NCBI RefSeq assembly: GCF_012044895.1
Contig: NZ_CP050695.1
Coordinates: 1,766,501 to 1,830,500, forward strand
Length of the DNA stretch: 64,000 nt
Direction: 5' to 3'
Source: Aquisalimonas sp. 2447
GTDB lineage: Bacteria > Pseudomonadota > Gammaproteobacteria > Nitrococcales > Aquisalimonadaceae
Shown here piece after piece: positions 17,380 to 56,715 of the stretch. Every line of letters begins with the position of its first letter. The stretch's first letter is position 1. The notes beneath the pieces are model-generated. The model was not told the DNA's origin, did no database searches, and saw only the letters and a list, made by a program, of their open reading frames with translations. The translations under genes were made by a program, and so were the position numbers.

Positions 17380-18354
17380 CTAATACCCATCCGATTGTCT
17401 AAAACTCGGCCCCTTCACGCGCGCCGTCGTCTTGCCGCGGAGGTAGCGATTGGTTTGAGCTTCCGTGGAATGACCTGCTAGCGCCTTGGCGTCAAGACCC
17501 TGCGCTTTCGCATCGGTGATCGACTTGGCTCGGATGTCATGCCAGCCCACGTCCTTGATGCCCGCTCTACTGGCAGCGCGGGCGAACAGATCTCTGGCGC
17601 CTCTGTAGGAGCGGATCTTGCCGTTCCTTTGCCCTAGAAGATACAGCGGGCGTGTCCGGTGAAGGCGCTTCGCGCGTTCCACGGCATCGCTCAGGCCCGG
17701 TGACATCTCAACGAGCAGGCGCTTGTCCGTCTTTTCCTGTCTGAACGACACGCCTTGTTCGGAAACATCTGTCAGCCTGATTGCCAGGACGTCGCCGATG
17801 CGCTGTCCCGTGTAGTACGCGATGTCCATCATGCAGCGTAATGCCGACGAAGCCTCGGCATATATCGCGCGCCATTCTTCGTCAGTGATGTAGCGAGTGC
17901 GCTGTCGCTCATCGAAACGTTCGATTGACAGGACCGGGTTCGCGTCTCTCATGCCAACGCGGACAGCGTGGTCCATGGCCATCTTAAGTAGACTGCGCAT
18001 GCGGTTGGCGAAGTTTGGAGACTTTCTGTAAGCATCCATAAGCTGCCCCACATGTTTCGGTTGGACGTCCGCGACCGCGAACTCGGCGAAGGCGTCTTTC
18101 AAACGGCGGGCAGCGATGCCGTACTGTTCCAGCGTGTTGGCTTTGAGCCCGCGCTCATGGGCGTCTGCCAAGGCCTTGTCGATGAGCGCTCCCATGTTGG
18201 TGCCGGAACGGCTGTGCAGCGTCGCATACTTGTGGATGGCAGAGGCATAGTCGCGTCCCAGGTTCACCCACTTACCTGCGCGAACGAGATAATAGGCTCC
18301 ATGCTTGTAGTACACGCATGGGGGCAGATGGCGGTCTTTTTTTCGTGGTCTCAT
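17380..18354 (-). CDS. Tyrosine-type site-specific integrase
   Basis: 324 aa, phage-integrase family. The N-terminal arm- and core-binding parts span about 1-150. The catalytic domain carries R185 (TGQRIGD), H272-x-x-R275 (HDIRAKS), H295 (GHST) and the nucleophile Y304 (NRYLRG), so it looks active. It probably integrated the island that extends to the right. It overlaps the small upstream DUF4224 gene by four bases (ATGA). No att direct repeat could be paired inside the window; the right end may lie beyond it. Confidence 0.93.
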   Translation of the reverse strand: MRPRKKDRHLPPCVYYKHGAYYLVRAGKWVNLGRDYASAIHKYATLHSRSGTNMGALIDKALADAHERGLKANTLEQYGIAARRLKDAFAEFAVADVQPKHVGQLMDAYRKSPNFANRMRSLLKMAMDHAVRVGMRDANPVLSIERFDERQRTRYITDEEWRAIYAEASSALRCMMDIAYYTGQRIGDVLAIRLTDVSEQGVSFRQEKTDKRLLVEMSPGLSDAVERAKRLHRTRPLYLLGQRNGKIRSYRGARDLFARAASRAGIKDVGWHDIRAKSITDAKAQGLDAKALAGHSTEAQTNRYLRGKTTARVKGPSFRQSDGY

Positions 18355-18548
18355 GGCAAGCGGAGCTTTGGTTCGCGCGTCGCCTCGATGCTACCACCCA
18401 GCCTCTGTTCTACGTGAGAGCGGAGCACCTTAGGCCTGTTGCGTGCATCCAGTTCATGCTTGTAACCGTTCTGAATAAGCCAGCGCCGCTGGTCAGCGGC
18501 TCGTTTATATCCAGTCAAGTCTTCCAGTTCGTCGTGGTCCAGGAACAT
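18351..18548 (-). CDS. DUF4224 domain protein next to integrase
   Basis: 65 aa. The pattern LDHDELEDLTGYKRAADQRRWLIQNGYKHEL matches DUF4224 proteins, which sit directly upstream of phage integrases and may act as small DNA-binding or excision factors. It is coupled to the integrase by an ATGA overlap. Confidence 0.75.
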   Translation of the reverse strand: MFLDHDELEDLTGYKRAADQRRWLIQNGYKHELDARNRPKVLRSHVEQRLGGSIEATREPKLRLP

Positions 18549-18827
18549 CAGTTATCTCCTCTGCGTCGAATCCGCTTTCCGTCGCCCGGGGTGGCCGCGC
18601 TGCACATGGCTCATTTTCTCAAATCCACAACCGCTGTTTCCTGCAAAACGACCGGCTTCTGTGCATGATTTATTGCGATTCGCGGTCCGAAAGCCGAACA
18701 ACACCAGACCAGTTCCCTACTCATAGAGATATGCGCTTCGAAGCGTTTGTTTAGCCTCCAGCCCCTGATGGCTGCCACACGTGCTCCAGTGCATGACATG
18801 TCCAGTGGACACCTTCAGGGAAGTTTG

Positions 18828-18870
18828 TCACCGTTCTGAACGGTGAGTCGGGATTCCCTACGGGAATCCC
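18828..18870. repeat. Two tandem perfect inverted repeats between integrase module and defence genes
   Basis: 18828-18846 is an 8-bp palindrome with loop CTG (TCACCGTT / AACGGTGA); 18850-18870 is a 9-bp palindrome GGGATTCCC / GGGAATCCC with loop TAC. They lie in the 384-base non-coding gap 18549-18932, about 60-100 bases upstream of the first defence gene. They could be operators, a bidirectional terminator or part of an att region. Nothing else is recognised in that gap. Confidence 0.6.
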
Positions 18871-18932
18871 GCCGATGATGCGCTGACTCGCGCGAGCGAC
18901 ATGAGCCGACATAGGGAGTGTGATCCGCAGGC

Positions 18933-20162
18933 ATGCCGACAGCGCCGACCGCGACTCTTACGTGGATCGATTTGACTGCTGCGGACCGCAACAAGGTCCG
19001 CCAGGTCCTCGATCTCTTCCGTGAGCAGGGTACCGTTGACGAGCTCGGGCTCGGCACGTTGCGTGATCTGCTCTCGGATTCGCTCTTCCCGGGTACATCC
19101 GTGCTGCATACCCGCATGCGCTACGTGCTGTTCATCCCCTGGATCTACCGGGCGATGGAACGCGACGACAAGCGCATTTCGGATGTCTCGGGTGAGGCGC
19201 GTGCCCGGGAGATCGCCCTCATCGAAGCTCTCAAGTCCGGAGACGGCGGGTCAGGCATCATCGGTTCGGAGGCCGGGCGCGGGCTCTCCAGATTGCCGAG
19301 CTCCGCATACTGGGCGGCACTGGTGCGCTGGGGCGTGTTCGTGCCGCGTCAGAGTCAGAGCTGGTATCACCGGCATTTCCGCCGACTTGCTCGCGCGGAG
19401 CCGGCGGGTCGTGCGGATGACCCCGGCGTGACCTGGACCCAGGAGCCCACTTGGCACCCCCGCGTGCCCGAGCCGCCGACGGACCTGTTCGAGGCGGCAA
19501 ACTTCCGGTTAACCCGTGAGGAGGCGGCGTTCGTGCAGGGCTGCATCCAGGCAAACGTCAACGGCAGCCTGCTCGCCTGGCTCGCAGGGGAGGGCGGCGC
19601 GGGCCTTGGCTCCTCAGCGGCCCTCTGGGAAGAGCCACAGGTCTGGGAGGCACCCTCGACCATTACGGGGATTGCTGAGCTGGCGCAGCGCTTTTCCCTC
19701 CATGTGGAAGGGGCGCCGCTTCTCTATAACCTCCTGCTGGCGGAGATGCGGCGGGATCGCGCCGGCGATCACAACGGGACGGACAGTGATCGCATTGAAG
19801 ACTACCGCGAACGCCTCGGGGAGTGGGCGGCGAGGGAAGCGGGGGAGGCTCCGTTCAATCCCGACGCGCTCTGGGCTCTGGCGGCACAGCGCGGTGTTGC
19901 GGTGAAACCGCCCCAGAAGCGATTCGTTGAGGCCTGGTCCGAGGCGATTGCCCGGTCAGGCGCGGCCAGCGTCGCCGACAGTACCGCGCTGCGCCAGTTG
20001 ATCGAAAAGCGCGAGCGAATGCTCAAGGGAGCCCGCGCCCGGACAGTCAATCACAGCCGCCTGCTGGACTGGCGCGGGGACGTTGGCGTCGGCCGAATGA
20101 GCTTTCGCTGGCCGCAGGTCCGGCAGATGCTCACCGACCTCCATCACGGACTCGCCAACTGA
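18933..20162 (+). CDS. DUF6361 family protein
   Basis: 409 aa. The beginning TLTWIDLTAADRNKVRQVLDLF, then ELGLGTLRDLLSDSLFPGTSVLHTRMRYVLFIPWIY, matches DUF6361, a family without known activity. No catalytic motif was seen. Its stop codon overlaps the start of the PLD gene by one base (TGATG), and that gene overlaps the helicase by four, so the three form one operon, presumably one machine. By analogy with other nuclease-helicase operons in defence islands it may be a sensor or adaptor; this is inference. Confidence 0.8.
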   Translation: MPTAPTATLTWIDLTAADRNKVRQVLDLFREQGTVDELGLGTLRDLLSDSLFPGTSVLHTRMRYVLFIPWIYRAMERDDKRISDVSGEARAREIALIEALKSGDGGSGIIGSEAGRGLSRLPSSAYWAALVRWGVFVPRQSQSWYHRHFRRLARAEPAGRADDPGVTWTQEPTWHPRVPEPPTDLFEAANFRLTREEAAFVQGCIQANVNGSLLAWLAGEGGAGLGSSAALWEEPQVWEAPSTITGIAELAQRFSLHVEGAPLLYNLLLAEMRRDRAGDHNGTDSDRIEDYRERLGEWAAREAGEAPFNPDALWALAAQRGVAVKPPQKRFVEAWSEAIARSGAASVADSTALRQLIEKRERMLKGARARTVNHSRLLDWRGDVGVGRMSFRWPQVRQMLTDLHHGLAN

Positions 20163-21964
20163 TGCTGGCCCCCGACGCACGCCAAGTCGCCACTGATATC
20201 CTGCGGCCTCCGCCCGGCTACAGGCTGGATCGTGCGGTGATGACCACCTACAGCCTGGATCTCGAAGTGCTGCTGGCGCTGCCGCTTGCCGTGCTGGCGC
20301 AGTCCGATGAGGGTGTCGATACGCTGCTCGAGCAACCGCTGCTGCTCCTCCAGGCGCTGCGCGAGGCGACGGACCGCGTCCACGTGTTTGTCGACGAGAC
20401 GGGTATCGCCGTTCCGCACTTGCCGCGTGAACTCTACTCCGCCCTCGAGCCGAGCGTCCACCCGGTGCGCGCCCCGGGCGGCGGAGCGTTCCATCCCAAA
20501 GTCTGGGTCGCACGGTTCGCATCGGACGACGAACAACCCGTCATCCGGGTATCCGTCGCATCGCGCAATCTCACCTTTGATCGCTCCTGGGACATTGCTC
20601 TGGTCAGCGAGGGAAGCCCGGGCGAGGCCGAATCGGTGCCGGGCTCAGCGTCTCTATCGGACCTGGTTCGCCGGCTGCCGACATTCGCAGCGCAGACGCT
20701 GCAGCCGGAACTCGACGCGGAGCTGCAGCACCTGAGTGAGGAACTGGGGCGCACGCGCTTTCCGGCGCCGGAAGGTTTCGACAGCGAGGTCACGTTTCAC
20801 ACGTTAGGGCTCAGTGACGCCCCTGCAAACCGAGCGTGGCAGCCAATGCCCACGGCCCGGCGGGTCCTTGCCATTGCGCCGTTCGTGGGTGCCGACGGGC
20901 TCCGGGCGTTGACGGCGAGCGGGGCAAAGGAGCGGATGCTGGTCAGCCGTGCCGAGACCCTGGATGCGCTACCGGACGCCGTGCATCGGCAATGGATTGA
21001 CCAGCAGGTCATGATGGAAGCGGACCTGGAGGAGGCCGAGGATGAGACGGCCGGGCGACCGGCAGGCCTGCACGCTAAGGCAATCATCATGGAACACGGT
21101 TACCGGGCGCACTGGTTCGTCGGGTCCGCCAACCTGACCTGGTCCGCTCTTGCTGGGCGCAACGTGGAGGTCATGGCCGAGGTCAGCGGCAGCAAGGGCT
21201 ACAGCGAGGGCAAAGGCGTCGGGATTGACCGGTTCCTGGAGGCGGGCTTCGCGCAGTTGTGCGCGCCCTATGCCGCCAAGGACACCGAGCCGGCGGATGC
21301 CACCAGCGTGGCGGCCGAGAAGGCGCTGCAGCAGCTTCGCGACGACCTTCTGCATGGTGACCTGCGCATTTGCTGTACGCCGGGCGAGGAAGACTGGCGC
21401 TGGGAGTTGGCGGGCTCATTGCCGGTCGCCGCCGGTGTGGAGGTTGGCTACTGGCCCGTAACCCTCAACCGGGAGCAGGCGCGGAGCCCGGTTGATGGCG
21501 CGTCCTGGCAGTTGCCCCTGGAGCGTTTGACGGCATTCGTTGCCTTCCGGCTCCGCGCCACGGCGGCGGAGGTCGATGACCTGACCTTTGTCTTGAAACT
21601 GCCCACCGAGGGCATGCCGGACGGGCGCTCCGATCGCGTTCTGCGCATGATCATCAATACCCCCGAGCGATTCCTTCAGTTCCTGCGCGCCCTGCTGGGC
21701 GGTCTCGAGGGGCTGATGGAGTGGGCGGGTGGCGAGGACGATGAGGACGGGCAGGGCCAACACTGGGGCAGTGGGTTCGATGCGGACACCCTGCTGGAAG
21801 ACCTTCTCCGTGCCGCATCCCGGGATCCCGAGCGTCTGGAGGCTGTCCGCAGCGTGATCGAGGATCTCACCGAGGTCTCCGGTGATGCGGCGGTGGTCCC
21901 AGAGGAACTACGGGCGATCTGGCAGGCGGTCGATCAGGCGTTAGAGGGGAGGGCAACGCGGTGA
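20162..21964 (+). CDS. Phospholipase D-like nuclease protein
   Basis: 600 aa with two PLD half-sites: HPK at 111-113 with N136 (SVASRNLTFDRSWD), and HAK near 304-306 with GSANLTWSALAGRN about 17 residues later. Two HxK...N motifs are the usual composite active site of PLD-family nucleases such as DISARM DrmC. Residues 400-600 have no recognised motif. It is the middle gene of the DUF6361-PLD-helicase operon and could be the DNA-cutting part. Confidence 0.85.
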   Translation: MLAPDARQVATDILRPPPGYRLDRAVMTTYSLDLEVLLALPLAVLAQSDEGVDTLLEQPLLLLQALREATDRVHVFVDETGIAVPHLPRELYSALEPSVHPVRAPGGGAFHPKVWVARFASDDEQPVIRVSVASRNLTFDRSWDIALVSEGSPGEAESVPGSASLSDLVRRLPTFAAQTLQPELDAELQHLSEELGRTRFPAPEGFDSEVTFHTLGLSDAPANRAWQPMPTARRVLAIAPFVGADGLRALTASGAKERMLVSRAETLDALPDAVHRQWIDQQVMMEADLEEAEDETAGRPAGLHAKAIIMEHGYRAHWFVGSANLTWSALAGRNVEVMAEVSGSKGYSEGKGVGIDRFLEAGFAQLCAPYAAKDTEPADATSVAAEKALQQLRDDLLHGDLRICCTPGEEDWRWELAGSLPVAAGVEVGYWPVTLNREQARSPVDGASWQLPLERLTAFVAFRLRATAAEVDDLTFVLKLPTEGMPDGRSDRVLRMIINTPERFLQFLRALLGGLEGLMEWAGGEDDEDGQGQHWGSGFDADTLLEDLLRAASRDPERLEAVRSVIEDLTEVSGDAAVVPEELRAIWQAVDQALEGRATR

Positions 21965-24900
21965 AGCGTCCGGACGTCGAGGCGATTCTGCGCCCGTTGA
22001 AACCCTTCCAGCGGCGTACCGTCGATCATGCATTCTTGCGCCTGTTCACTGCGCCGGACAGCACCCACCGCTTTCTTGTGGCCGACGAGGTCGGGCTCGG
22101 CAAGACCCTTGTGGCCCGCGGGGTGATCGCCCGCGCGATTGATCACCTCTGGGACCGAAGCGACCGCATCGATGTGGTCTACATCTGCAGCAACCAGAGT
22201 ATCGCCCGATCCAACCTGCCCAAGTTGCGGGTGGAGGCCGACGCCCAGCAGTCGGTGGCGCTGGCAACACGACTGACCATGCTCGCCACCGAGCTTGCAC
22301 CGCGCCAGGGCGGCAGGGGGCTCGGCGAGGGGAGGGTGAACTTCATCAGTTTCACCCCCGGTACCTCGTTCAACATGGGGCATTCCGGTGGCATGGAGCG
22401 CGAGCGGCGCGTGCTCTACTGGCTGCTTGTTGATGTGGTCTCACGCCGGGAAGGGTTGGCCAACCTGCTCCAGGGCTGGGTCGGGCGGGATCGCTGGCTG
22501 GATCTGCTGGGGACGCCCCTTCCGCTGGAGCCCGGCATTCGGCAGCGCTTTCAGGCAGCGGTCATCGGTGATCACGCATTGTTCGAACGCCTCGAGGCGG
22601 TGATCGAGCGGTGGTTTCTGGAAGCGCCGGAAGAGTATGGCGTGGAGGCCCGTCAGGCCAGGAATCAGGTCACTGGAGAGCTCCGGCAGCGTCTTGCCGA
22701 ATGCTGCGTCGAGGCGCTGCAGCCGGATCTCGTTATCCTCGATGAGTTCCAGCGATTCAAGGCACTGATCAACCAGGATGCCGACGACGATGATCCGGCG
22801 ACGGAGCTCGCACGGCACCTGTTCACGGCCACCAACCAGCACAACGAGCCGGTGCGCACGCTGCTGCTCTCGGCAACGCCGTATAAGCTCTACACCACGG
22901 ATGCAGAGCTCGACACGGACGACCACTACCAGGATTTCCATGCGACGACGCGCTTTCTCCTGGGCTACGACGGTGAACGGGTGGCCACGCTGGACAGCCA
23001 GCTCTCCCGATTCAGTCAGCAGTTGAAGCGTGCTGCTACTGGCATCCCCACCGAGGTCCGGGCGGCGAAGGTGGCCGTGGAAGCGAGCCTGCGCGCCATC
23101 ATGGCCCGTACCGAGCGGGTTGCCGCCAGTGAGGAACACGACGGCATGATGCGAGAGGCCTCGGTCGCGCTTAGTGTCGAGCCGGCGGATGTGCGGCAGT
23201 ATCTCGCCGCCGACGCGTGGTTCCGCGCCGTCGGTGCCAGTGATCCGATGGTCTACTGGAAAGCCGGGCCCTATCTACCGCATTTCATGCAGGGGTATCG
23301 GGTCAACGATCGGGTCGAGGAGACGGCGCTCCTCCAGCCCGAGAAGCTGACGGCCGTCCAGCGTCGCTACCCGGAAGCCTTTCTTGAACGCAGCGAGCTA
23401 TCCCGTTGGCGGGAAATGGATCCGGGCAATGCCAAGCTGCGTGCCGTCGTCTCGGAGCTGCTGGATACGGGCCTTTGGCGGCTGCTGTGGATGCCGCCAT
23501 CCCTCCCGTACTGGAACTTGGGTGGCCCATTCCAGGGACAGGAGGACCGCACCAAGAGCCTGCTCTTCTCCGCTTGGAACTTCGTCCCCGATGTGGTCAG
23601 TGGCGTGCTCAGTTATGAGGCGGAGCGGCGCATGATGGGGGAAGCCCTTGCGCACTATGAGGATCCGGCCAGCCAACGGCGCCCGCTGTTGCGCTTCACC
23701 GACCAGGAAGGTGTCGGACGATCTCGGCACCGACTGCTCCTGTTGTTGGTGCCATCACTTCGCTTCGCCGATGAACTCCATCCGTTGGCCGCCCCCGAGG
23801 GTTCCGATGTCCGCGCCTGGGTCGGCGAACGTATCGAGGCCATGCTGGCTGAAGTGACGGAAGCCACGAGCGAGGAGGCAGAGGATCCCCGCTGGGAGTA
23901 TATGGCGCCAGTCGTTCTGGAACCGGAGCTCAGAGCCTTTTTCCGATACTGGGCGCAGGCGTCCGATCAGGACACCGGGAAGCCGAACCCCGAGGCCCTG
24001 CCGCACTACCTGGATGACCTGGCCAACCTGGATCCCGGTGAGTTGGGCCGTCCGCCAGCAGGGCTTGTGGAGTTGTTGACCGACGTCGCCCTGGGGGCGC
24101 CGGGCGTGGTGGCCGCCCGAACGCTTGCTAGTGCCGGGCTCGGTGAGCGGCAACGGCGGGCGCGCGCGACCCAGATCGCCCACGCGTTCTGGAATCTCTT
24201 CAACCGCCCGGCGGTGATCTGCCTGCTGGACCAAATCTACGGAGATGCCCGGCAGTCCTCGGACAACGCTCACTGGCGCCGGGTGCTGCGGTACACGGTC
24301 GACGGCAATCTCCAGGCCGTGCTGGATGAAGCCTGGCACCTCTACTGGGAGCAATTCGGTTGGTCCGAGAGTGAGCCGCCGGAAGAGGTGGCGAGGCGCT
24401 GCGTCCAGGAGCTGGTGGCGACCATCGAGCCGCGCCCGTCGCGCGTGCACGCGCAGTTCCATGAGGCGGACCACCAAGGACGGCTGACGACCGAAACCCT
24501 GCGCATCCGCACCACATTCGCGCAGCGCTTCGGTGACGTCCGCACCGAACAGGGCGTGATCAGCCAGGATGCGGTGCGCAGCGCTTTCAACAGCCCCTTC
24601 CGGCCATTCGTGCTCACGAGCACTTCGGTGGGCCAGGAAGGGCTCGACTTCCACCCCTGGTGTCACCGCCTGATCCACTGGAATCTTCCCGGGAACCCGG
24701 TCGATCTCGAACAACGCGAGGGGCGCGTGCACCGGTACAAAGGGCATGCGGTCCGGCGGAACGTCGCGGGCTACTACGCGGACGCAGCCCGTGCCCGGTG
24801 GGCACCGAGTGCGGACCTCTGGCGACTACTGTTCACGGCCGCGGACTTTGCGGCCCGTGAGGCCGGTCAGGATGATCTGGTCCCGTACTGGGTTGCCCCT

Positions 24901-25140
24901 GGACCGAGCAAGGTCGAGCGCCACGTTCCAACGCTGCCCTACACGCGGGAGGTCGAGGCGTTCCGCCGGCTGCGTCGCCAGCTCGCAGCCTATCGTGTGG
25001 TCTTCGGGCAGCCCCGGCAGGAGGAACTGCTGGCCATGCTCGACCAGGCCGGCATTCCGGATGACCAGCTTAGCGAATGGATGATCCGGCTTGCACCGGG
25101 AGACTATAAGCGAGAGACGCATGATGACGTCAGCGCTTGA
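21961..25140 (+). CDS. Large SF2 helicase of the PLD cassette
   Basis: 1059 aa. Walker A is DEVGLGKTLVA (GLGKT 45-49), Walker B/motif II is VILDEFQRF (near 260), motif III LLLSATPYK (near 301), motif V STSVGQEGLDF (near 887) and motif VI EQREGRVHRYKG (near 920). Hundreds of residues lie between the two RecA lobes, probably substrate-sensing inserts. The GTG start overlaps the PLD stop (GTGA). DEFQ instead of DEAH places it with SNF2-like or DISARM-type translocases. It likely moves along DNA for the associated nuclease. Confidence 0.87.
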   Translation: MKRPDVEAILRPLKPFQRRTVDHAFLRLFTAPDSTHRFLVADEVGLGKTLVARGVIARAIDHLWDRSDRIDVVYICSNQSIARSNLPKLRVEADAQQSVALATRLTMLATELAPRQGGRGLGEGRVNFISFTPGTSFNMGHSGGMERERRVLYWLLVDVVSRREGLANLLQGWVGRDRWLDLLGTPLPLEPGIRQRFQAAVIGDHALFERLEAVIERWFLEAPEEYGVEARQARNQVTGELRQRLAECCVEALQPDLVILDEFQRFKALINQDADDDDPATELARHLFTATNQHNEPVRTLLLSATPYKLYTTDAELDTDDHYQDFHATTRFLLGYDGERVATLDSQLSRFSQQLKRAATGIPTEVRAAKVAVEASLRAIMARTERVAASEEHDGMMREASVALSVEPADVRQYLAADAWFRAVGASDPMVYWKAGPYLPHFMQGYRVNDRVEETALLQPEKLTAVQRRYPEAFLERSELSRWREMDPGNAKLRAVVSELLDTGLWRLLWMPPSLPYWNLGGPFQGQEDRTKSLLFSAWNFVPDVVSGVLSYEAERRMMGEALAHYEDPASQRRPLLRFTDQEGVGRSRHRLLLLLVPSLRFADELHPLAAPEGSDVRAWVGERIEAMLAEVTEATSEEAEDPRWEYMAPVVLEPELRAFFRYWAQASDQDTGKPNPEALPHYLDDLANLDPGELGRPPAGLVELLTDVALGAPGVVAARTLASAGLGERQRRARATQIAHAFWNLFNRPAVICLLDQIYGDARQSSDNAHWRRVLRYTVDGNLQAVLDEAWHLYWEQFGWSESEPPEEVARRCVQELVATIEPRPSRVHAQFHEADHQGRLTTETLRIRTTFAQRFGDVRTEQGVISQDAVRSAFNSPFRPFVLTSTSVGQEGLDFHPWCHRLIHWNLPGNPVDLEQREGRVHRYKGHAVRRNVAGYYADAARARWAPSADLWRLLFTAADFAAREAGQDDLVPYWVAPGPSKVERHVPTLPYTREVEAFRRLRRQLAAYRVVFGQPRQEELLAMLDQAGIPDDQLSEWMIRLAPGDYKRETHDDVSA

Positions 25141-25529
25141 CGCGGGGGACGGCGAGTCCCTCGAAGGGTTAATGAGCCAGGCGCACCATGTATTACCAAC
25201 GCGCACAGTCAGGTGTCACATCAAGTGTTTTGGGGGCAGGCTAGGACATCGAGAATCAAGTCCTGTGCGGACTTTGTCTCTGCTCCCTCGCCGAGCTTCC
25301 GAGCAGCGGCCTTGCGTATTGACCTGATTCCCTTTTTGCGAGGGAATGGCGCCATCCGGAAAGGAACAAACGACCGGTATAGACAGCCAAGGATTTGCTG
25401 GTTGCGGCGGCCACGAGAACACGACGAAACCTGCCCGTGATTCCCTGAATCACCGAAACCGGACACAGCTTGCGCGAGGCTGCAGCAGGTGACCGCGGCT
25501 TGTGGGTTCGTTATGGGATTGGAGACCCG
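25141..25529. other. Non-coding gap before zorA
   Basis: About 390 bases between the helicase stop and the chosen zorA start. I see no RNA gene and no clear promoter hexamers. A minus-strand frame (25221-25562) is open but has no recognisable product. The gap separates two defence operons and probably contains the zorA promoter. Confidence 0.5.
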
Positions 25530-27269
25530 ATGGAAATCCTTGAAGCAGTACCAGTGATGCAATGGCTTGGTTTGATCACGTCGGTGCCGGGCATTGCAGT
25601 CATTTGCAGTGCGATCATTCTTTGGGCGCTTGTAGCCCGCTACCGCTTGAAGTATCGGATCGAGCCGTTGATCCGCGACTTTCGGTCGTGCGTCCAGACG
25701 CTAAAGAATACCGGCGGAGAAGGGGAGTTCGCCGAGTACTTCTCCGAACTCGAAGAGACGTTCGAGCGCAGCCTTGTGCTCAAGCACACATGGGCTGAGT
25801 TCTCCGAGACGCTGATCTTCCCCGACATGGACAGCGATTCAGGTGAGACTCCTACCATTAGGAACACCGCTGCTCCTGATCGATATTTCAACCGGCAGAA
25901 TCTCCTTGAGCCGCGAGTAAACCTCCGCATTTACAACGCTCTACCGAATCTCCTTACCGGCACAGGTATCCTTGGGACATTCGTTGGTCTTGTTATCGGT
26001 ATCGGACAGGCGAGCCAGGGGCTGGCTGCCGAGGATGTGGGGCAAGCACAGCAGGCTTTGTCGGCCCTGCTTAGCGGGGCCGCTCTTGCCTTCATGACAT
26101 CGATTGTTGGTCTCGTATCCTCGATCGCCTTCTCGTCCTGGGAGAAGAGAAAGGTTCACCAGTTCGATCAACTCTGTAACGAGTGGGTCGAAGCATTGGA
26201 CGCGCGTCTGAGCCGAGTGACTCAGGAGGGCCTTACAGATGAGTCACTTCGCGAACTCAAGCAGCAGCGTGCGGCTCTAGAGCATTTCAGCAATGATCTC
26301 GCCTTCCAGATTTCCGAAGCGTTGGATGACCGTGTTACTTCGAAGTTGACTCCTGTGCTGGAGCGCGTGGTCCACGAGATCGAAGGCATGCGATCGGAGC
26401 AACGACAGGCGAGCGACGAGACACTCGAGCGGCTGATGCGCGAGTTCTCCGAGTCAATCTCCTCGGCTGCAGGTGAGGAGATGAAGGCGTTCGCCGGGAC
26501 GGTGCAACAGATGGGCCAGAGTCTGGAACAGCAGGTCCAAGCCATGTCTTCCAGTCATGAGGAGATGCAGGCTGCCTCACAGCGCACCATCCAAGAGCTT
26601 TCAGACACCTTCCGGGAGAGCAGCCGCCAGCTCAATGAAGAGCTCTCCAGTGCGGTGCGTGGGCTGGTTACTGAGATCAGTCAGACAGTGGCCGAAATGA
26701 CCCGTGAGCTCCGAGCGGCAACCGAGACCACTACGACCAACATGAATGAAATCGTCGAGCGGTTTGATGAGTCGGTAGCCAAGTTGCGCCAGTCCATCGC
26801 GGATATTCGGGAGATGACATCCAATACGCAGGACCTGAACGAGAAGATGCGCCAGCTTCTTGAGTCCGTCGATACGTCCCATAAGGCGCTCGCCGAGGTT
26901 AAAGAGCCGCTGGAGACTGCTGGTCAGCGGTTCCAGGAGACGGGGAGCCGAGTGGAGGGGGCCGCTGGCGACATCGGCACTGCGATGCAGAAAGTCTCGG
27001 ATGCGGCGGATCAACTCTCGCGTACTCAGTCCCAGACGACCGATATCTGGAAAAGCTACGAGGAGCGCTTCCAGCGTGTGGATGAGTCCTTGGACAAGGT
27101 CTTCGAGCAGCTCCAAGAGGGCTTGTCAGAGTACGCGGATTCCACGAACCGTTACGTGCAAGGGCTCGATGAGCACGCAACCAAAGTCGTCGAGCAGCTT
27201 GCGGGTGCGGTCCGACAGCTCGAAGAGACCATTGAGGAATTCAACAGTTACGCGAATGAGCGGGCATGA
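25530..27269 (+). CDS. zorA: Zorya protein ZorA (MotA-like proton channel subunit with long tail)
   Basis: 579 aa. Three membrane segments are visible: ITSVPGIAVICSAIILWALV near the start, then LLTGTGILGTFVGLVIGIG and ALLSGAALAFMTSIVGLVSSIAF, the MotA/TolQ/ExbB-like pair. From about residue 210 to the end the protein is predicted coiled coil, the cytoplasmic tail typical of ZorA. The ATG at 25530 has GGAG upstream; a TTG 20 codons earlier is less likely. It overlaps zorB by ATGA and forms the inner-membrane motor with ZorB. Confidence 0.93.
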   Translation: MEILEAVPVMQWLGLITSVPGIAVICSAIILWALVARYRLKYRIEPLIRDFRSCVQTLKNTGGEGEFAEYFSELEETFERSLVLKHTWAEFSETLIFPDMDSDSGETPTIRNTAAPDRYFNRQNLLEPRVNLRIYNALPNLLTGTGILGTFVGLVIGIGQASQGLAAEDVGQAQQALSALLSGAALAFMTSIVGLVSSIAFSSWEKRKVHQFDQLCNEWVEALDARLSRVTQEGLTDESLRELKQQRAALEHFSNDLAFQISEALDDRVTSKLTPVLERVVHEIEGMRSEQRQASDETLERLMREFSESISSAAGEEMKAFAGTVQQMGQSLEQQVQAMSSSHEEMQAASQRTIQELSDTFRESSRQLNEELSSAVRGLVTEISQTVAEMTRELRAATETTTTNMNEIVERFDESVAKLRQSIADIREMTSNTQDLNEKMRQLLESVDTSHKALAEVKEPLETAGQRFQETGSRVEGAAGDIGTAMQKVSDAADQLSRTQSQTTDIWKSYEERFQRVDESLDKVFEQLQEGLSEYADSTNRYVQGLDEHATKVVEQLAGAVRQLEETIEEFNSYANERA

Positions 27270-28087
27270 CAGAGCGCGACGCCAACAGCCGGTTGGAGGA
27301 CGACGGGGCCAGCTACATGATGTCGGTATCCGACATCATGTCGGGCCTTCTGTTCGTGTTCGTGATTACGCTCATGGCCTTTGTTCTCAACTTCCAGCAG
27401 GCCCAGAGAGAGGCTCAGGCGGAGCAGGACAGCCTTCGGGAAGAACAAGAGAGCCTGCGTGCGCTAGTGAGCGCGTACAGCGGCATAGAGGATTTGCGCG
27501 AGCGTATGCTTCGGGAGCTAGAGAGGGCTTTGGCCGCACAGGGGATCCAGGTCACGGTCGAAGCTGAGGTGGGAGTTCTGCGCTTAGACGAGCGCGCCAT
27601 CGAGTTTGAAAGTGGAAGGGCGGAGCTTAGCGGCCAGGCAGGAAAGAATGCTGCGGTAATTGCGGAAGTCCTAGTCGATGTTATTCCCTGTTATACGGAG
27701 CTGGACCGCGACGCCGCCGCCGCTCGGGAGTGCAGTGCGGAGACTCTGGGTGCGTTAGAGGCGGTTTTTATCGAGGGACACACCGACAACCAACCTATGA
27801 TGCGGCAAGGAGTCGATCAGAACTGGGAGCTGTCTGCGAATCGGGCGATTCGGGCATACCGGGAATTCGCAGAGGTGTCGCCAAGCCTGACCGAACTCGT
27901 GAATCGTGACAAACAACGGATTTTCAGCGTGGCAGGGTACGGTTACTCGCGCCCCCTTCCGGGGAGAGACTATGACGTCCCAACCGCCGATCCCCAGAAC
28001 CGCCGTATTGACCTGCGATTCATTATGGCACCACCAACGAATGACCCAGAGGTGATCGAGGCACTTCGCGGACGAGGTGCCGAATGA
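27266..28087 (+). CDS. zorB: Zorya protein ZorB (MotB/OmpA-like stator subunit)
   Basis: 273 aa. A single N-terminal membrane helix (SDIMSGLLFVFVITLMAFVL) has an Asp at its start, as in the proton-carrying residue of MotB-type stators. The C-terminal OmpA-like peptidoglycan-binding domain contains IEGHTDNQPM and NWELSANRA. With ZorA it should form an ion-driven motor anchored to the cell wall. It overlaps zorA and zorC by four bases each, indicating coupled translation. Confidence 0.93.
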   Translation: MTERDANSRLEDDGASYMMSVSDIMSGLLFVFVITLMAFVLNFQQAQREAQAEQDSLREEQESLRALVSAYSGIEDLRERMLRELERALAAQGIQVTVEAEVGVLRLDERAIEFESGRAELSGQAGKNAAVIAEVLVDVIPCYTELDRDAAAARECSAETLGALEAVFIEGHTDNQPMMRQGVDQNWELSANRAIRAYREFAEVSPSLTELVNRDKQRIFSVAGYGYSRPLPGRDYDVPTADPQNRRIDLRFIMAPPTNDPEVIEALRGRGAE

Positions 28088-29532
28088 CGGCGTTGGTCAA
28101 ACAGCGTGCGGCGCTGATCCGCGCGCCGAAAGTCCCGGACTTTTATTCCAGAGAGCCTCTGCTGAAGGGCGCTCACGAACATGTCCGCCGCATGTTCTCA
28201 GGCGCCGGCGCCGAGGTTCCACCCGCGGAAGACCTTGAACGCGTCGCGAGAGAACTCTGGGCGGCCTACCAGAACCGTGATGAGACCTGGTGGCGTTCGT
28301 TGCGGAGATTGCGGTTGAGTCCGTGGGCGGTGCTTGGAGCCTACCGTCCCGAAGGAGGAGCGCTTGGTGAACATGCCGGTTTCGTGCGGTGGTACCTGAA
28401 ATGCGTCCAGGGTGCCGGGAAACCTCGGGCATTTCTCGCGGTTGCACATGCTTACCTGTACTACTTTCACCCGAAGACGGCAGAGATCGCCGCGTTCCGC
28501 GACGTCGCCATTGACGGATTGAGGTCTTCAAGATCCCCCAGGGCCAGAGCCTTTCTCGATTTGCATGACACCCATCGGTTGCTCGACTCCGATGGCTACA
28601 AGGTGATTGCCCAAGCCTTTGGGGCCAGTACAGAGCATGGGCAAGCGTTCCTCGATCGAGTGGGGCTTTCCGGCAGCCTGAGCGACTCCGCGTTCGTCCG
28701 GTTTGTCTTTCGCGGGGTCATGAGCGATCTGCGACGAGACCTGAAGCGGGGTGCCCTGAATGCCGAAGAACTAGAGCGGCGGCTGTCGCTAGCACTGCGG
28801 CAGGGGGAGCCAGGGGTGAGCTTTCGGTTTGGGCCGGAGCTGCTAGGGGACTTGGCCGAAGCTCTTCTGGTGCCCTTCGAGGAGCGGGATCCGGATAAAG
28901 AGGTGAAAGAGTCCATCAAGGGGTTTTTACTGAGTCACCTGGGCGATCCGCGTCTGAAGTCTACTGGCTGGAACAGGGTCGGAGAGGCTGCGCAGCGAGT
29001 CTTCCGGCAATGGTTGGTTGAGGGGACGCTCGAGGATTTCTTCCGCTTGCTGGACCAGCAGGCGAGGTACTACGAGAACGCGGACCGCCAGTGGCGCTAC
29101 CGCAGTGCATTCTGGCTCGCCTATCTTCGCGAAGGCCATATCACGGATGCCTGGGTCGCTCTTGGCTGGAAAATTGCCCAGGATTCCAGGAGCTATCTAA
29201 GCCGCCTTGCTGGGACATATGGGGAACTGAAGAGCGGTGATGGCGCCCGCAATGACCAGGCAGTGCTTGTTCTACGTGTGGGCAATTTAGTTATCACGGA
29301 GTGGAGTCACTCCTCAAAGGTGCGCATCTGGAGCGACCGGGAATCCTCCGGGCCACAGTTCTACAAACAGCGTTATCAACGGTCGGACTTGGTGACTGGT
29401 CCCGATTTCGAGCAAGCACACCATGGCGCGGAGCGAGGGACCTGGCAGCGCAAGGTGGAAAGTTATATTCGGAAGCAAACGGGGATCCGTTTCAGCATCA
29501 GGGAGCTAATGCCCCATGGTCGAACACGATAG
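28084..29532 (+). CDS. zorC: Zorya protein ZorC (EH-signature type)
   Basis: 482 aa, soluble. Identified mainly by position between zorB and zorD and by length; the sequence around KAEIAAFRD, DSDGYKVIAQAFG and EDFFRLLDQQARYY fits EH_Signature proteins. ZorC is the DNA-binding effector of type I Zorya that works with the ZorD translocase. It starts by ATGA overlap with zorB; its end overlaps zorD by 17 bases. Confidence 0.85.
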   Translation: MTALVKQRAALIRAPKVPDFYSREPLLKGAHEHVRRMFSGAGAEVPPAEDLERVARELWAAYQNRDETWWRSLRRLRLSPWAVLGAYRPEGGALGEHAGFVRWYLKCVQGAGKPRAFLAVAHAYLYYFHPKTAEIAAFRDVAIDGLRSSRSPRARAFLDLHDTHRLLDSDGYKVIAQAFGASTEHGQAFLDRVGLSGSLSDSAFVRFVFRGVMSDLRRDLKRGALNAEELERRLSLALRQGEPGVSFRFGPELLGDLAEALLVPFEERDPDKEVKESIKGFLLSHLGDPRLKSTGWNRVGEAAQRVFRQWLVEGTLEDFFRLLDQQARYYENADRQWRYRSAFWLAYLREGHITDAWVALGWKIAQDSRSYLSRLAGTYGELKSGDGARNDQAVLVLRVGNLVITEWSHSSKVRIWSDRESSGPQFYKQRYQRSDLVTGPDFEQAHHGAERGTWQRKVESYIRKQTGIRFSIRELMPHGRTR

Positions 29533-32341
29533 TTGGGTGCGGCGGGAAGGTGGTTTTCTTCTGCAGCCGCGGCATCAGACAGGGAAGGCGATTCTCGCGA
29601 CGCTCTTGCAGGATGGTGACGCCGCGGAACTCTCCGATGGCGTGTTCGTCAGTGACGAGCGCCTCGCAGAGTTTGCGGCATGGGAACTGCGTGCGCTCGA
29701 GTTGCCCGAAGCCGGGCCTTTTCGTCTCGAGATCAGGGGTGAGGGCCCGATCGCGAGTAACGGATTCAAACTTAAGTCGCGACTACTGCGCCACGACGGC
29801 AAGCCGGTCATGGGTGGTAACCGGGATGGTGTACTCCTTAAATCAGGGTCGCGACAGTACATGCTCCTTGATCCCCTTTACAGCATCCTCGAGGCAATAC
29901 GGGAGTATCAGGCGCTTGACCCGGCGGATACGGATGGCCGGTTCGCGCGCTGGGATGCCATAAAGGCGCTCCTTCCTGAAGATGCGGTGGTTGATCAGCA
30001 ACTCCAGACGATTCAGCTCGTGCGCGCCGACGCATTCACCCTGGACGTGAAAGAGGATGCTAGCTTCGATCCAGTGCTGCTCAGCCGTGGACGGAAACAG
30101 ACGGTGCTAGAGGGGGAGCAGCCCGAGCCCGATGAGGCACTCCCCGATGCTCACCATCAGACCTTTACGGATCGCTTTCGCAGGATGTCGGATGCCGGAG
30201 GACACTACGCACTGGGTGGTGGCTGGTATGTCGTGGTCCCCGAGCAGACAAGGCGTGCGCTGTCTGTGGTTCACCGGAAACAGAAGGAGCCGGGTGCGGC
30301 ACGTCAGGCGTTCATCGCCAATCCCCACGCGACGTTGCGTGATGAACTGGGTGAGGAGATCGATGAAGAGGTACTTGAGAACCTGTTTGTCGAACAGCCC
30401 CGATTTCTCAGCAGCCGCGTGCAGTGCCTTGGTCAATGGCATCCCAAACTCTGTGCTTATGTGTCGAACAAGGGAAACCAGTGGCTTCCGGAGGAAGCTG
30501 ACGCGTTCTCGGGTGCGCACACCGTCGGCGTCCCGCTTGGCGATCAGTTCGTGACGCTTCCGTTGCAGGATGCGCCCGATCTCTACGAGCAAGTCCGGGG
30601 GGCCCTGGAAGACGGAAGAGAATCAGTGAATTATCAGGGAACCAGCGTTCCAGTGAACGAAAACACGCTGAAGACCCTGAGTAAGCTAGTGGCGAATAAA
30701 TCCAAGCCGGATAAGCCGCCCAAGGAACCAGGCACGGATGATGATGAGGAGGACGAGGAACTTGTTCCCATTGTCATCGACAATCTGGAAGAACTTGGCT
30801 ATGCGGCAACGCGGCCGCGCCGCGCAGGTCAGCCCGGCGGGATACCAGCCGCTCTGGCGACACGACACCTTTACCCCCATCAGCAGGCTGGGCTCAGTTG
30901 GCTACAGACAGCCTGGGTCGAGGGCATGCCGGGGGTTCTCCTTGCCGACGACATGGGCTTGGGGAAGACACTGCAGACCTTGGCATTCCTTGCCTGGATG
31001 CAAGAGCAGATGGAGTCCGGTGAACACCCTCGCAAGCCGTTTCTTCTTGTTGCACCGACGGGCCTGCTGCGCAACTGGGAGGCCGAAGAAGAAACACATC
31101 TGGTCTCACCCGGTCTTGGCGACTTGATTCGTGCTTACGGCAAAGAGCTTGCTGAACTTGAAGCGGACGGCCTGCATCGCCGGACACAACGCCTTCAAGA
31201 AGCGGACTGGGTGATGACTACCTACGAAACGCTCCGAGACCGTATCCACACATTCATGCCGGTTGACTGGGCTGTGGTGGGGTTCGATGAGGCGCAGAAA
31301 ATCAAGAATCCCGGATCGCGCATGACGGAAATGGCGAAGTCATTGCAGTCCGATTTCGTCATTACCATTACTGGCACACCCGTCGAGAACAGCTTGTCCG
31401 ATCTCTGGTCCCTGATGGACGCGTCCCACGCGGGCTTGCTCGGGTCCCTCAAGGAGTTTCGCGATACCTACCAGAAACCCGCTGAGGAGGATGGCGACAC
31501 CGACCGGGCGCGTGCTCTACGCGCCCTGCTCGAAGACGAGGTGCATCCCCCAGCGATTCTGCGACGTCTGAAGGACGACCACCTCGAAGGCTTACCGGGT
31601 AAGAGCGCGCACGAGTTGCGCGAAGAAATGCCGCCGCGCCAGGCGGAAGCGTACTCGATTGCACTGCACAAGGGACTACAGGGCAAGGGTACGCAAGGCG
31701 CCGTGCTCGAGGCGATACAGCACCTGCGCAAGACCTCGCTTCTCGCCGATTCCCTAGATGAGACAGGGGTTACGGACGAAATCGTCGACGCGTCTGCGCG
31801 GTTGCGTGCCACTATGCGAGCGTTGGACGAAATCCAGGCAAAGGGCGAGAAGGCACTCATTTTCGTCGAGTATCTGGACCTGCAGGAGGCACTGATTCCG
31901 TACCTTCAGCAGCGTTACAACCTGGCTGAGCAGCCTTTGCGCATAAGCGGCCGAGTGGGTGGCAACGAGCGGAAACGCGCAGTGGATGCCTTCCAGAGTC
32001 GGCCGGTGGGGCAGTTCGACGTCATGCTGCTGTCCCCAAAGGCGGGCGGTGTCGGTTTGACACTGACTGCGGCGAATCATGTCATCCACCTGTCCAGGTG
32101 GTGGAATCCTGCGGTGGAAGATCAATGCACCGACCGCGTGTACCGAATCGGGCAGGAGCGGGACATTCATATCTACTACCCGATGGCTCTGCATCCAGAG
32201 CTTGATGAGAACAGTTTTGATCTTACCCTGCACCGACTACTAGAGCGCAAACGTGATCTCAGCCGCCAAGTGCTGACTCCGCCTCAAGTGACACAAGATG
32301 AGTTGGCTGATCTTTGGCGGCAGTCGACCTCGGGGGCTTAG
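29516..32341 (+). CDS. zorD: Zorya protein ZorD (SNF2-family helicase-nuclease)
   Basis: 941 aa. The N-terminal half (about 1-450) lacks common motifs; the C-terminal half is a Snf2 ATPase: LADDMGLGKTLQTLAFL (near 478), VVGFDEAQK (near 589), TGTPVENSLSDLWSLM, SPKAGGVGLTLTAANHVIHL and QCTDRVYRIGQ (near 870). It defines the system as type I Zorya (ABCD); type II would have ZorE instead. It presumably acts on invading DNA after membrane activation. Confidence 0.92.
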   Translation: MVEHDSWVRREGGFLLQPRHQTGKAILATLLQDGDAAELSDGVFVSDERLAEFAAWELRALELPEAGPFRLEIRGEGPIASNGFKLKSRLLRHDGKPVMGGNRDGVLLKSGSRQYMLLDPLYSILEAIREYQALDPADTDGRFARWDAIKALLPEDAVVDQQLQTIQLVRADAFTLDVKEDASFDPVLLSRGRKQTVLEGEQPEPDEALPDAHHQTFTDRFRRMSDAGGHYALGGGWYVVVPEQTRRALSVVHRKQKEPGAARQAFIANPHATLRDELGEEIDEEVLENLFVEQPRFLSSRVQCLGQWHPKLCAYVSNKGNQWLPEEADAFSGAHTVGVPLGDQFVTLPLQDAPDLYEQVRGALEDGRESVNYQGTSVPVNENTLKTLSKLVANKSKPDKPPKEPGTDDDEEDEELVPIVIDNLEELGYAATRPRRAGQPGGIPAALATRHLYPHQQAGLSWLQTAWVEGMPGVLLADDMGLGKTLQTLAFLAWMQEQMESGEHPRKPFLLVAPTGLLRNWEAEEETHLVSPGLGDLIRAYGKELAELEADGLHRRTQRLQEADWVMTTYETLRDRIHTFMPVDWAVVGFDEAQKIKNPGSRMTEMAKSLQSDFVITITGTPVENSLSDLWSLMDASHAGLLGSLKEFRDTYQKPAEEDGDTDRARALRALLEDEVHPPAILRRLKDDHLEGLPGKSAHELREEMPPRQAEAYSIALHKGLQGKGTQGAVLEAIQHLRKTSLLADSLDETGVTDEIVDASARLRATMRALDEIQAKGEKALIFVEYLDLQEALIPYLQQRYNLAEQPLRISGRVGGNERKRAVDAFQSRPVGQFDVMLLSPKAGGVGLTLTAANHVIHLSRWWNPAVEDQCTDRVYRIGQERDIHIYYPMALHPELDENSFDLTLHRLLERKRDLSRQVLTPPQVTQDELADLWRQSTSGA

Positions 32342-32511: not shown

Positions 32512-33429
32512 TTGAACACCGAGAACCACTCCCAGACGGCCGCATTCATCTGGCAGGTCGCCGATCTCCTGCGCGGTGATCTCAAGCAGTCCCAGTACGG
32601 ACGGGTGATCCTGCCGTTCACGCTGCTGCGCCGCCTGGAGTGCGTGCTGGAGCCCACCAAGGCCCAGGTGCTGGAGGCGGCGCGAGAGCATGCCAGCAAG
32701 CCGGACGGTGTCCGGGAGCGTCTTTTGCTGCGCGCCGCCGATCAGCCGTTCTTCAACGCTTCGCCGCTGACCCTGGGCACGCTCTCGGACACGCAGACCG
32801 CCGACGACCTCATGAGCTACGTGCAGTCGTTCAGCGCGGATGCCCGTGAGATCTTCGAGCACTTCAACTTCGAGGACTTCGTCCAGCAACTCTCGGCGAA
32901 CAACCTGCTCTACCAGGTGGTGCAGCGGTTCGCCGGCATGGATCTCAGCCCTCAGCGCATCTCGAACTTCGGCATGGGCTCGATCTTCGAGGAGCTCATC
33001 CGCAAGTTCGCCGAGAGCTCCAACGAGACCGCCGGGGAGCACTTCACGCCCCGGGACGTGGTGCACCTCACCACCTCGCTGGTGCTCACCGGCCAGGACG
33101 ACAAGCTCAAGCCCTACAGCATCGTCACCGTCTACGACCCCACTGCGGGCACCGGCGGGTTTCTCTCCGAGAGCGACGAGTACATCCAGCAGGTGAGTGA
33201 GAGCGTCAGGGTCTCCCTGCACGGCCAGGAGCTGAACCCCGAGTCCTACGCCATCTGCAAGGCGGACATGCTGATCAAGGGCCAGCAGGTGGAGAACATC
33301 AAGCTCGGCAACACGCTCTCCGACGACCACCTCGCCGGCCAGAGCTTCGACTACATGCTCGCCAATCCGCCCTTCGGTGTGGAGTGGAAGAAGGTCCAGA
33401 AGCAGGTCACCGATGAGCACAAGTTCAAG
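32512..33429 (+). pseudogene. hsdM: Type I R-M methyltransferase HsdM, 5' part (split by IS66)
   Basis: First 306 codons of an N6-adenine methyltransferase subunit, TTG start with GAGGA upstream. Present are the N-terminal helical domain ([20 protein letters not shown]), the AdoMet motif [10 protein letters not shown] and the catalytic NPPFG. An IS66 element follows directly after codon 306. The duplicated 8 bases at 33422-33429 recur at 36097-36104, and joining 33429 to 36105 restores an unbroken frame of 659 aa. As it stands the product ends shortly after entering the IS and is probably inactive. Confidence 0.92.
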
Positions 33430-33463
33430 GTAACCGGTCATTCTGGGGCGTCGTTGACAGGAT

Positions 33464-33730
33464 TCAGGGGATGTCCCGGAGCAGTTTGATGACCCCGGCG
33501 GGGACTTTCCATTGGCGGTGATCCTCGGCGTGGACCACCACCGTCTTGCGGTTGATCTTGACTACCTGGCCGAACACCTCGCCCTCGCGGCTGTTGAACG
33601 ACACCGCCTGACCCAGGCGCAGGTGCTTGAGGACATCGAGATCCTGGCGTGCCCGCAGTTCATCGATGCGGTGGCAGATGAGGTCGTTGAGCTCCAGGAG
33701 TTCATCGAGGGTGAGGTCGTCAATGCGCAT
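33464..33730 (-). CDS. Small accessory protein carried by IS66
   Basis: 88 aa: [21 protein letters not shown], then a small beta-rich part ([37 protein letters not shown]) that resembles a KOW/SH3-like barrel. It lies between tnpC and the IS end on the same strand as the transposition genes, so it is an IS passenger. Function unknown. It is well formed and probably translated. Confidence 0.65.
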
Positions 33731-33777
33731 TCAACAGTCTCTCGCTGGCAGTGCATGGAGTCGGGAGGGCGTGGTGT

Positions 33778-35298: not shown

Positions 35299-35319
35299 GG
35301 GGCTGATTCCCTTCGCAAA

Positions 35320-35697
35320 TCACCCGTGCATTTTACCCGATTCCGTGCCCGGGTGGGGGGATTGTCGCCACCTTTTCTGCCGTTTGCGAATGACCAGATC
35401 CAGCCCTTCGAGCAGCGCGGTGAACTGCGTGCGGCTCAGCGCCTCCACGGCGTCCCCCGCCGTCAGGGCACCGCCGAACTGCCCCCGCTCCAGGCGCTTG
35501 CTCCACACGCAGTAACCGTCGCCGTCGAAGTACAACAACTTCAGCAGCGTGCGCCGGCGGTTGATAAACACAAACCCCTGGCCCGACAGCGGATCCTGGC
35601 CCAGATGCCGCCGGACCAGCGCCGCCAGTCCGTCAAACGAGCAGCGCATGTCCGTTGGCCGTGTGCACAGCCACAGCCGCGATGGCTGACTCAGCAC
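35320..35697 (-). CDS. tnpB: IS66 accessory protein TnpB
   Basis: 125 aa, GTG start at 35697. The family core is ALVRRHLGQDPLSGQGFVFINRRRTLLKLLYFDGDGYCVWSKRLERGQF. It is needed with TnpA for IS66 transposition. The start overlaps the end of tnpA by a few bases. Confidence 0.92.
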   Translation of the reverse strand: MLSQPSRLWLCTRPTDMRCSFDGLAALVRRHLGQDPLSGQGFVFINRRRTLLKLLYFDGDGYCVWSKRLERGQFGGALTAGDAVEALSRTQFTALLEGLDLVIRKRQKRWRQSPHPGTESGKMHG

Positions 35698-36008: not shown

Positions 36009-36104
36009 GATCACGTTCCAGTCTGCTGCAAATGTGCCTGCGCAGACTACGGCGCCAGTCAATGGCCGAAAACAACGCCCCAGAATGACCGGTTACAGTT
36101 CAAG

Positions 36105-39201: not shown

Positions 39202-39204
39202 GGG

Positions 39205-39612: not shown

Positions 39613-39709
39613 ACGTGCTTGGAACGGGGCATGCGGCGAAGAAGCCAAATGCTTGCCCACCCTGCTGGCATGTGCCAGCATCAAACGACAGTTAAACCGG
39701 TACCTTCCC

Positions 39710-40371: not shown

Positions 40372-40381
40372 GAGGCGCCCC

Positions 40382-53619: not shown

Positions 53620-53623
53620 CTAA

Positions 53624-56637: not shown

Positions 56638-56715
56638 CTTCTTTGAAGCGCAGGGTCATTAACGGACAAGACGGACGGCGAGGGGTTGCCGCCGAAGATT
56701 CTACAAGGGGGAGAT

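What the first reader, a model, noticed from the sequence alone, without database searches (positions are those of the whole stretch)
18933..25140. DUF6361 - PLD nuclease - SF2 helicase operon: candidate undescribed defence system
Three large genes overlap by one and four bases and form one operon directly after an island integrase and before Zorya. The PLD protein has both HxK/N half-sites and the helicase has all SF2 motifs. Nuclease plus translocase plus an unknown protein is a typical anti-phage design. It resembles DISARM only in having PLD and helicase; there is no methylase and no DUF1998 protein. I cannot match it to a named system.
Basis: partly seen in the sequence, partly recalled or inferred. 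Interest (0 to 1): 0.75.

Follow-up and report, generated by a model that had tools for sequence, protein, structure and literature searches.

The report
A known anti-phage system, Azaca
The three overlapping genes are a complete copy of Azaca, an anti-virus defence system that a standard database already lists, sitting in a bacterial chromosome next to several other defence systems.

Summary
In detail: three intact genes at 18933-25140 overlap by 1 and 4 bases and encode a DUF6361 protein, a double-HxK PLD protein and an SF2 helicase. The claim that the system is undescribed is wrong: PADLOC-DB models ZacA, ZacB and ZacC match the proteins end to end (407, 547, 1060 bits). This is Azaca. DISARM DrmC and DrmD matches are short and far below NCBIfam cut-offs. 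The trio is a real unit: in 369 genomes of the class the same 7 carry all three, and in 80 further ZacA loci ZacB follows in 80 and ZacC in 76. Zorya next door is a separate system: matches to the window's ZorA/ZorB occur in 1 of 86 loci. Nuclease and helicase motifs are invariant in the aligned rows. ZacA is predicted all-helical, without a clear PDB match. Most likely ZacC is an ATP-driven motor on DNA, ZacB the nuclease and ZacA an adaptor or regulator; this mechanism is inferred. Side finding: in 11 of the 80 loci an AddA-like helicase-nuclease gene lies directly upstream of zacA.

The parts
18933..20162 (+). zacA, DUF6361 protein (409 aa), predicted all-helical
   Evidence: PADLOC PDLC03828 ZacA E 3.5e-122, residues 7-407; PF19888 E 1.2e-54; AlphaFold2 mean pLDDT 89.1
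20162..21964 (+). zacB, PLD-superfamily nuclease-like protein (600 aa) with two HxK half-sites (H111/K113/N136 and H304/K306/N324)
   Evidence: PADLOC PDLC03829 ZacB E 1.4e-164, residues 1-597; half-sites invariant in 83 of 83 rows; Foldseek matches to Tdp1, PLD4, SauUSI, NgoAVII and BfiI
21961..25140 (+). zacC, SF2 helicase (1059 aa): GLGKT 45, DEFQ 261, SATP 304, GQEGLDF 891, QREGR 918
   Evidence: PADLOC PDLC03830 ZacC E 0, 1060 bits, residues 4-1046; motifs invariant in 67 of 67 rows

Best explanation
The operon is a complete Azaca anti-phage system (zacA-zacB-zacC). Most likely mechanism: ZacC, an SF2 ATPase with SNF2/RapA-type similarity, engages or moves along invading DNA. It is coupled to ZacB, a PLD protein whose active site is built from two HxK-N half-sites in one chain, which cleaves nucleic acid, probably phage DNA. 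ZacA, an all-helical protein with a strongly conserved N-terminal block, acts as adaptor or sensor that licenses the nuclease. Shown here: identity of the three families, intact genes, invariant motif residues, strict co-occurrence and recurring gene overlaps. Inferred: complex formation, DNA as substrate, direction of coupling and the role of ZacA. The confidence given is for the identity as Azaca; for the mechanism as worded I would say about 0.5.
For: End-to-end PADLOC matches to ZacA, ZacB and ZacC. In 369 genomes of the class, full-length ZacA, ZacB and ZacC occur in the same 7 genomes, adjacent and in the same order. In the 80 loci returned from genome contigs, ZacB follows ZacA in 80 and ZacC follows, at least in part, in 76; of the 4 without ZacC, 3 are cut at contig ends. 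Tight spacing or overlap recurs: 65 of 66 measured pairs at each junction lie between -14 and +13 bases. Motif residues are invariant. The ZacB model matches Tdp1, PLD4 and the restriction enzymes SauUSI, NgoAVII and BfiI. Passages of surveys list Azaca with a PLD-like domain, ZacC among SF1/SF2 defence helicases, and Azaca under nuclease activity, validated or predicted.
Against: No activity was measured here, and the founding paper (Millman et al. 2022, recalled) is not in the held library, so the tested operon was not compared. Two papers call the mechanism unknown. ZacA has no structural relative found to support a role. The Pfam PLD score of ZacB is below the curated cut-off. The Foldseek matches of ZacB have modest TM-scores (query-normalised 0.17-0.36 for the enzymes named) and include polyphosphate kinase and lipid phospholipases D. 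ZacC also has weak partial matches to other defence helicases: PDC-M27C at 67 bits, DrmD, DpdE, BrxHI and DrmA lower.
Confidence: 0.96

Rival explanations
1. A DISARM variant that has lost its methylase and DUF1998 protein.
For: Weak partial matches: DrmC to ZacB (best about residues 267-344), DrmD to ZacC residues 869-930, DrmA to ZacC residues 873-927.
Against: DrmC scores 26.5 bits against a cut-off of 133 and DrmD 59.1 against 610. The matches cover only short PLD or helicase motif regions. ZacA matches only ZacA in PADLOC.
Confidence: 0.01
2. A truly undescribed system that only resembles Azaca.
For: The nearest relatives in hand are only about 60-66% identical, and the family is diverse.
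Against: End-to-end matches to all three Azaca models in the Azaca gene order; the window's ZacB sits in a supported group of 6 rows, all from ZacABC loci.
Confidence: 0.02
3. A seven-gene functional unit with the neighbouring Zorya.
For: Zorya follows on the same strand 329 bases downstream, and one other locus (L016) has ZorA/ZorB-like genes near Azaca.
Against: Matches to the window's ZorA/ZorB (tblastn, E 1e-4) appear in 1 of 86 loci (85 distinct, as L013 and L057 are one contig), within flanks of limited length; remote Zorya types could be missed. The island holds other defence systems too.
Confidence: 0.03
4. It is Azaca, but its PLD protein acts on RNA, lipid or host DNA rather than phage DNA, giving abortive infection.
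For: The PLD superfamily includes lipid enzymes; the ZacB model also matches PLD1, PLD2 and polyphosphate kinase.
Against: The best fold matches are Tdp1 and PLD4, and PLD restriction nucleases are in the list; the partner is a helicase. This is inference, not a test.
Confidence: 0.3

Closest known systems
Azaca (ZacA-ZacB-ZacC), Millman et al. 2022 (recalled; not held; Azaca and ZacC named in passages)
   Same: All three proteins, full length, same order.
   Different: No difference found. About 60-66% identity to the nearest relatives in hand. Not compared directly with the tested operon.
DISARM (DrmA, DrmB, DrmC, DrmD, methylase; component list recalled)
   Same: Has a PLD protein and an SF2 helicase.
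   Different: Helicase and PLD proteins fall far below the DrmD and DrmC cut-offs; no methylase in the operon; ZacA matches no DISARM model.
Zorya type I
   Same: Lies next to it and also has an SF2-type helicase, ZorD.
   Different: ZorA, ZorB and ZorC match motor-type and EH-signature models that ZacA and ZacB do not match.
PLD restriction enzymes SauUSI, NgoAVII, BfiI
   Same: PLD fold in the Foldseek list of the ZacB model.
   Different: Matches are partial with modest TM-scores. SauUSI joins PLD and helicase in one polypeptide (recalled), here they are separate genes.

Membership tests
Azaca | ZacA (DUF6361) present, full length | tested here: met
   PDLC03828 E 3.5e-122, protein 7-407, profile 3-394/396; PF19888
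Azaca | ZacB (PLD-like) present, full length | tested here: met
   PDLC03829 E 1.4e-164, protein 1-597, profile 1-584/586
Azaca | ZacC helicase present, full length | tested here: met
   PDLC03830 E 0, 1060 bits, protein 4-1046, profile 4-1016/1019
Azaca | Genes adjacent, in order A-B-C | tested here: met
   Overlaps of 1 and 4 bases; same order in 80 (A-B) and 76 (A-B-C) of 80 other loci
Azaca | Homology to the experimentally tested operon | not tested
   Founding paper not held; only database models were used
Azaca | Anti-phage activity | not testable with these tools
   Needs phage plating
DISARM | DrmC at curated cut-off | tested here: not met
   26.5 bits against 133
DISARM | DrmD at curated cut-off | tested here: not met
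   59.1 bits against 610
DISARM | DUF1998 protein (DrmB) and methylase in the operon | tested here: not met
   None of the three proteins matches such a family; the next genes are an integrase and ZorA
Zorya | ZorA/ZorB within the trio | tested here: not met
   ZacA, ZacB and ZacC have no ZorA or ZorB hit in PADLOC at E 0.1

The most novel reading that the evidence does not exclude
Azaca may be the core of a larger modular DNA-processing defence. In a cluster of mostly alphaproteobacterial loci an AddAB-like helicase-nuclease pair, well below the housekeeping AddA cut-off, lies directly upstream of zacA (4 bases away in 8 of 11 loci), giving a five-gene cassette. ZacA would then be the adaptor that docks interchangeable DNA-end-processing modules onto the ZacB-ZacC nuclease and motor. 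The window carries the three-gene core form.
Probability: 0.15. Interest if true: 0.45.

Novelty: already known. Interest (0 to 1): 0.15.

Why it matters
It removes a false novelty claim: the operon is a plain hit of a current defence-system database. It adds an intact Azaca with invariant active-site motifs. Two held reviews that I saw in passages still call Azaca's mechanism unknown, so the residue and co-occurrence data point to testable mutants. The AddAB-like extension seen in relatives may be worth a separate look.

Tried and rejected
DISARM: rejected by NCBIfam cut-offs. A Zorya-linked composite: judged unlikely because matches to the window's ZorA/ZorB were found in 1 of 86 loci (flanks of limited length). 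Viral-contig scan with ZacA: 26 pattern matches, none a relative. PHROGs: no hit for ZacA or ZacB, three helicase-type hits for ZacC. PDB by sequence: ZacA profile one chance-level hit at E 0.4, ZacC none at 0.001, ZacB weak to 7clg (SauUSI) and NgoAVII. Fold search of ZacA: Foldseek best E 1.7; VIA-align best Z 4.4 over 67 residues, within what the tool calls a common level for helical models. A weak or missing match does not show that the fold is new. Exact direct repeats of 15 bases between 16-19 kb and 25-64 kb as island ends: none. Sigma-70-like promoter in 18300-25700: none found. Literature (held open-access library only): DUF6361, ZacA+Zorya and ZacABC give 0 papers each. 'Azaca' by word start gives mostly chemistry among the 30 of 190 listed. 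Azaca+phage gives 12 papers, of which I saw passages of 8 and the listing only for the other 4. ZacB/ZacC/'Azaca system'/'Azaca defense' gives 91, and the 20 listed are unrelated uses of the letters. Azaca+AddAB gives 0. Searches gave nothing of use.
Full report
Observation. The junctions read TGATG (1-base overlap) and GTGA (4-base overlap), typical of translational coupling. An integrase gene lies upstream at 17380-18354 on the minus strand, and a type I Zorya (ZorA, B, C, D) follows at 25470-32341.

Identity. Scanned against PADLOC-DB 2.0.0, the proteins match ZacA (3.5e-122), ZacB (1.4e-164) and ZacC (E 0, 1060 bits), each over nearly the whole protein and the whole profile. ZacA, ZacB and ZacC are the components of Azaca. 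The origin of the name (Millman et al. 2022) is recalled; that paper is not held. Passages of held papers link Azaca to a PLD-like domain (PMC10952713) and name ZacC as its SF1/SF2 helicase (PMC12278908). Two other passages call its mechanism unknown (PMC12926258; PMC10482375), and a table in PMC10855318 lists Azaca under nuclease activity, validated or predicted. Three more passages only record its presence or its use in a list of systems. All eight papers were seen as passages only.

Is the trio a real unit? In 369 genomes of the same class, the ZacA model has full-length hits in 7, plus one weak partial hit in G048 and a small second fragment in G236. The ZacB model hits 66 genomes, but only the same 7 have full-length matches; the other listed matches are short. 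The ZacC model at E <= 1e-50 hits the same 7; in one of them (G247) the match falls in two pieces. In all 7 the genes are adjacent and in the same order by their coordinates. Of 14 control genomes, none rings for ZacA or for ZacC at 1e-50; ZacC at the default threshold rings in 6 and ZacB in 5, which I read as generic helicase and PLD similarity.

They come from Pseudomonadota, Acidobacteriota, Gemmatimonadota, Myxococcota, Thermodesulfobacteriota, Actinomycetota, Chloroflexota, Planctomycetota, Verrucomicrobiota and Bacillota. ZacB follows ZacA in 80 of 80 and ZacC follows, at least in part, in 76 of 80. Of the four without ZacC, L055, L086 and L093 end at contig ends, and in L043 ZacB breaks off. 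In the 86 loci L013-L098, intact full-length genes were called for ZacA in 69, ZacB in 83 and ZacC in 67; part of the shortfall is contig ends and part is my automatic start-site rule, which missed some ZacA starts. For pairs with both genes called intact (66 at each junction), 65 gaps of 66 lie between -14 and +13 bases; the exceptions are -20 (L016) and 729 (L045). L013 and L057 are the same contig; L013 was dropped before counting residues and building the tree but not before the gap list. A quick ZacB tree of 83 rows puts the window in a group of 6 with Methylonatrum, Halorhodospira, two Ectothiorhodospiraceae MAGs and G236 (SH-aLRT 100). The tool warns of long branches, above all L018.

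Neighbourhood. Matches to the window's ZorA/ZorB (tblastn, E 1e-4) occur in 1 of 86 loci (L016), so I read Zorya as a neighbour, not a part. In five loci that I picked (L062, L068, L080, L083, L088), ten upstream proteins were scanned: they include a DRT1-type reverse transcriptase, McrBC-like genes and UvrD-type helicases, while three had no PADLOC match and one also no Pfam match. This is not a count of how often Azaca lies in defence islands. The window is itself a dense defence island: a type I RM locus broken by insertion elements, an Mrr-type enzyme, and an Avs3 system split by a transposase gene.

Active sites. In ZacB the half-sites H111-K113 and H304-K306, with N136, N324 and E336, are invariant in 83 of 83 rows, so the enzyme is expected to be active. 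In ZacC the SF2 motifs GLGKT, DEFQ, SATP, GQEGLDF and QREGR are invariant in 67 of 67 rows. A stretch of over 300 residues lies between a motif-IV-like block (532-543) and motif V (888-897); the motif labels are recalled. The AlphaFold2 model of ZacB (mean pLDDT 87.2) matches Tdp1 and PLD4 (best E 4.3e-08), polyphosphate kinase, SauUSI, NgoAVII, lipid phospholipases D and, at E 1.0e-03, BfiI; TM-scores are modest. ZacA (mean pLDDT 89.1; residues 1-14 and 26-33 under 50) is all-helical and gives no significant PDB match. Its most conserved block (W11, D13, D36, E37, G39, F52-P53-G54, T60, Y64) falls partly in the low-confidence N-terminus.

Mechanism. The best reading is ZacC as motor, ZacB as nuclease and ZacA as adaptor or sensor. 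Identity, intactness and residue conservation are shown. Substrate, complex formation and trigger are inferred.

Side findings. In 11 of 80 loci an AddA-like UvrD/PD-(D/E)XK protein lies directly upstream of ZacA; in 8 of these the AddB-like partner is also seen (in two pieces in L065), and in 3 the contig ends first. In 8 of the 11 the gap to the zacA start is 4 bases. Three AddA-like proteins tested score 271-297 bits to the alphaproteobacterial AddA model against a cut-off of 860.75, so they are not the housekeeping protein by that test. In the tree the 11 loci cluster but need 5 changes (0 of 500 shuffles as low), and close relatives such as L071 and L077 lack the pair although about 10 kb upstream is held. 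On plasmids, 59 records hold the AddA-like protein at E <= 1e-100; of the 30 listed, 10 have full-length ZacA directly next to it. Four of the five regions that I opened have no annotated DUF6361: there the pair lies near BREX genes, a DEAD/DEAH helicase gene, ubiquitin-like genes or a TerB-ATPase-helicase trio (the fifth has DUF6361). So the pair is a mobile module not tied to Azaca alone. In L045 a RelE-like (below cut-off) and HTH pair sits between ZacB and ZacC; L028 keeps the HTH gene and a remnant of the first.

Verdict. The locus is real, and it is already known as Azaca. The interest of the window's locus is low; the open questions are Azaca's mechanism and the AddAB-like extension elsewhere.

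Noticed in passing
window 25470-32341: Type I Zorya (ZorA, ZorB, ZorC, ZorD), open frames intact, directly downstream.
   Followed up: partly
window 32512-44499: Type I RM locus: hsdM in two pieces (32512-33489, 35655-37166) around an IS66-type transposase gene (33778-35298, minus strand), hsdS-like 37121-38200, an HTH_38/rve transposase-like gene 38169-39194, hsdR 40127-43573, then an Mrr-type enzyme 43570-44499.
   Followed up: partly
window 47316-55470: Avs3a in two pieces (47316-52469 and 53544-54818) separated by a DDE transposase gene (52509-53492), followed by Avs3b (54796-55470).
   Followed up: no
window 44519-45520, 55861-56637, 56686-58092: ORFs in the island without a Pfam match at E 0.001; the first two also lack a PADLOC match, the third was not scanned there.
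   Followed up: no
L053, L056, L060, L062, L065, L068, L072, L092 (pair); L058, L070, L097 (AddA-like only, contig end): An AddB-like PD-(D/E)XK protein and an AddA-like UvrD/PD-(D/E)XK helicase lie directly upstream of zacA in 11 of 80 loci; three tested AddA-like proteins are below the AddA cut-off.
   Followed up: partly
L099, L100, L101, L102, L103: The same AddAB-like pair on alphaproteobacterial plasmids near BREX genes, a DEAD/DEAH helicase, a TerB-ATPase-helicase trio, multiubiquitin/ThiF genes or, in L101, DUF6361.
   Followed up: partly
L045 5468-6144; L028 3337-3792: A RelE-like (below cut-off) and HTH gene pair between zacB and zacC in a Wenzhouxiangella MAG; L028 keeps the HTH gene and a remnant of the first.
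   Followed up: partly
L017 (G247:C2:2802423-2805564): The ZacC match falls in two pieces in this genome.
   Followed up: no
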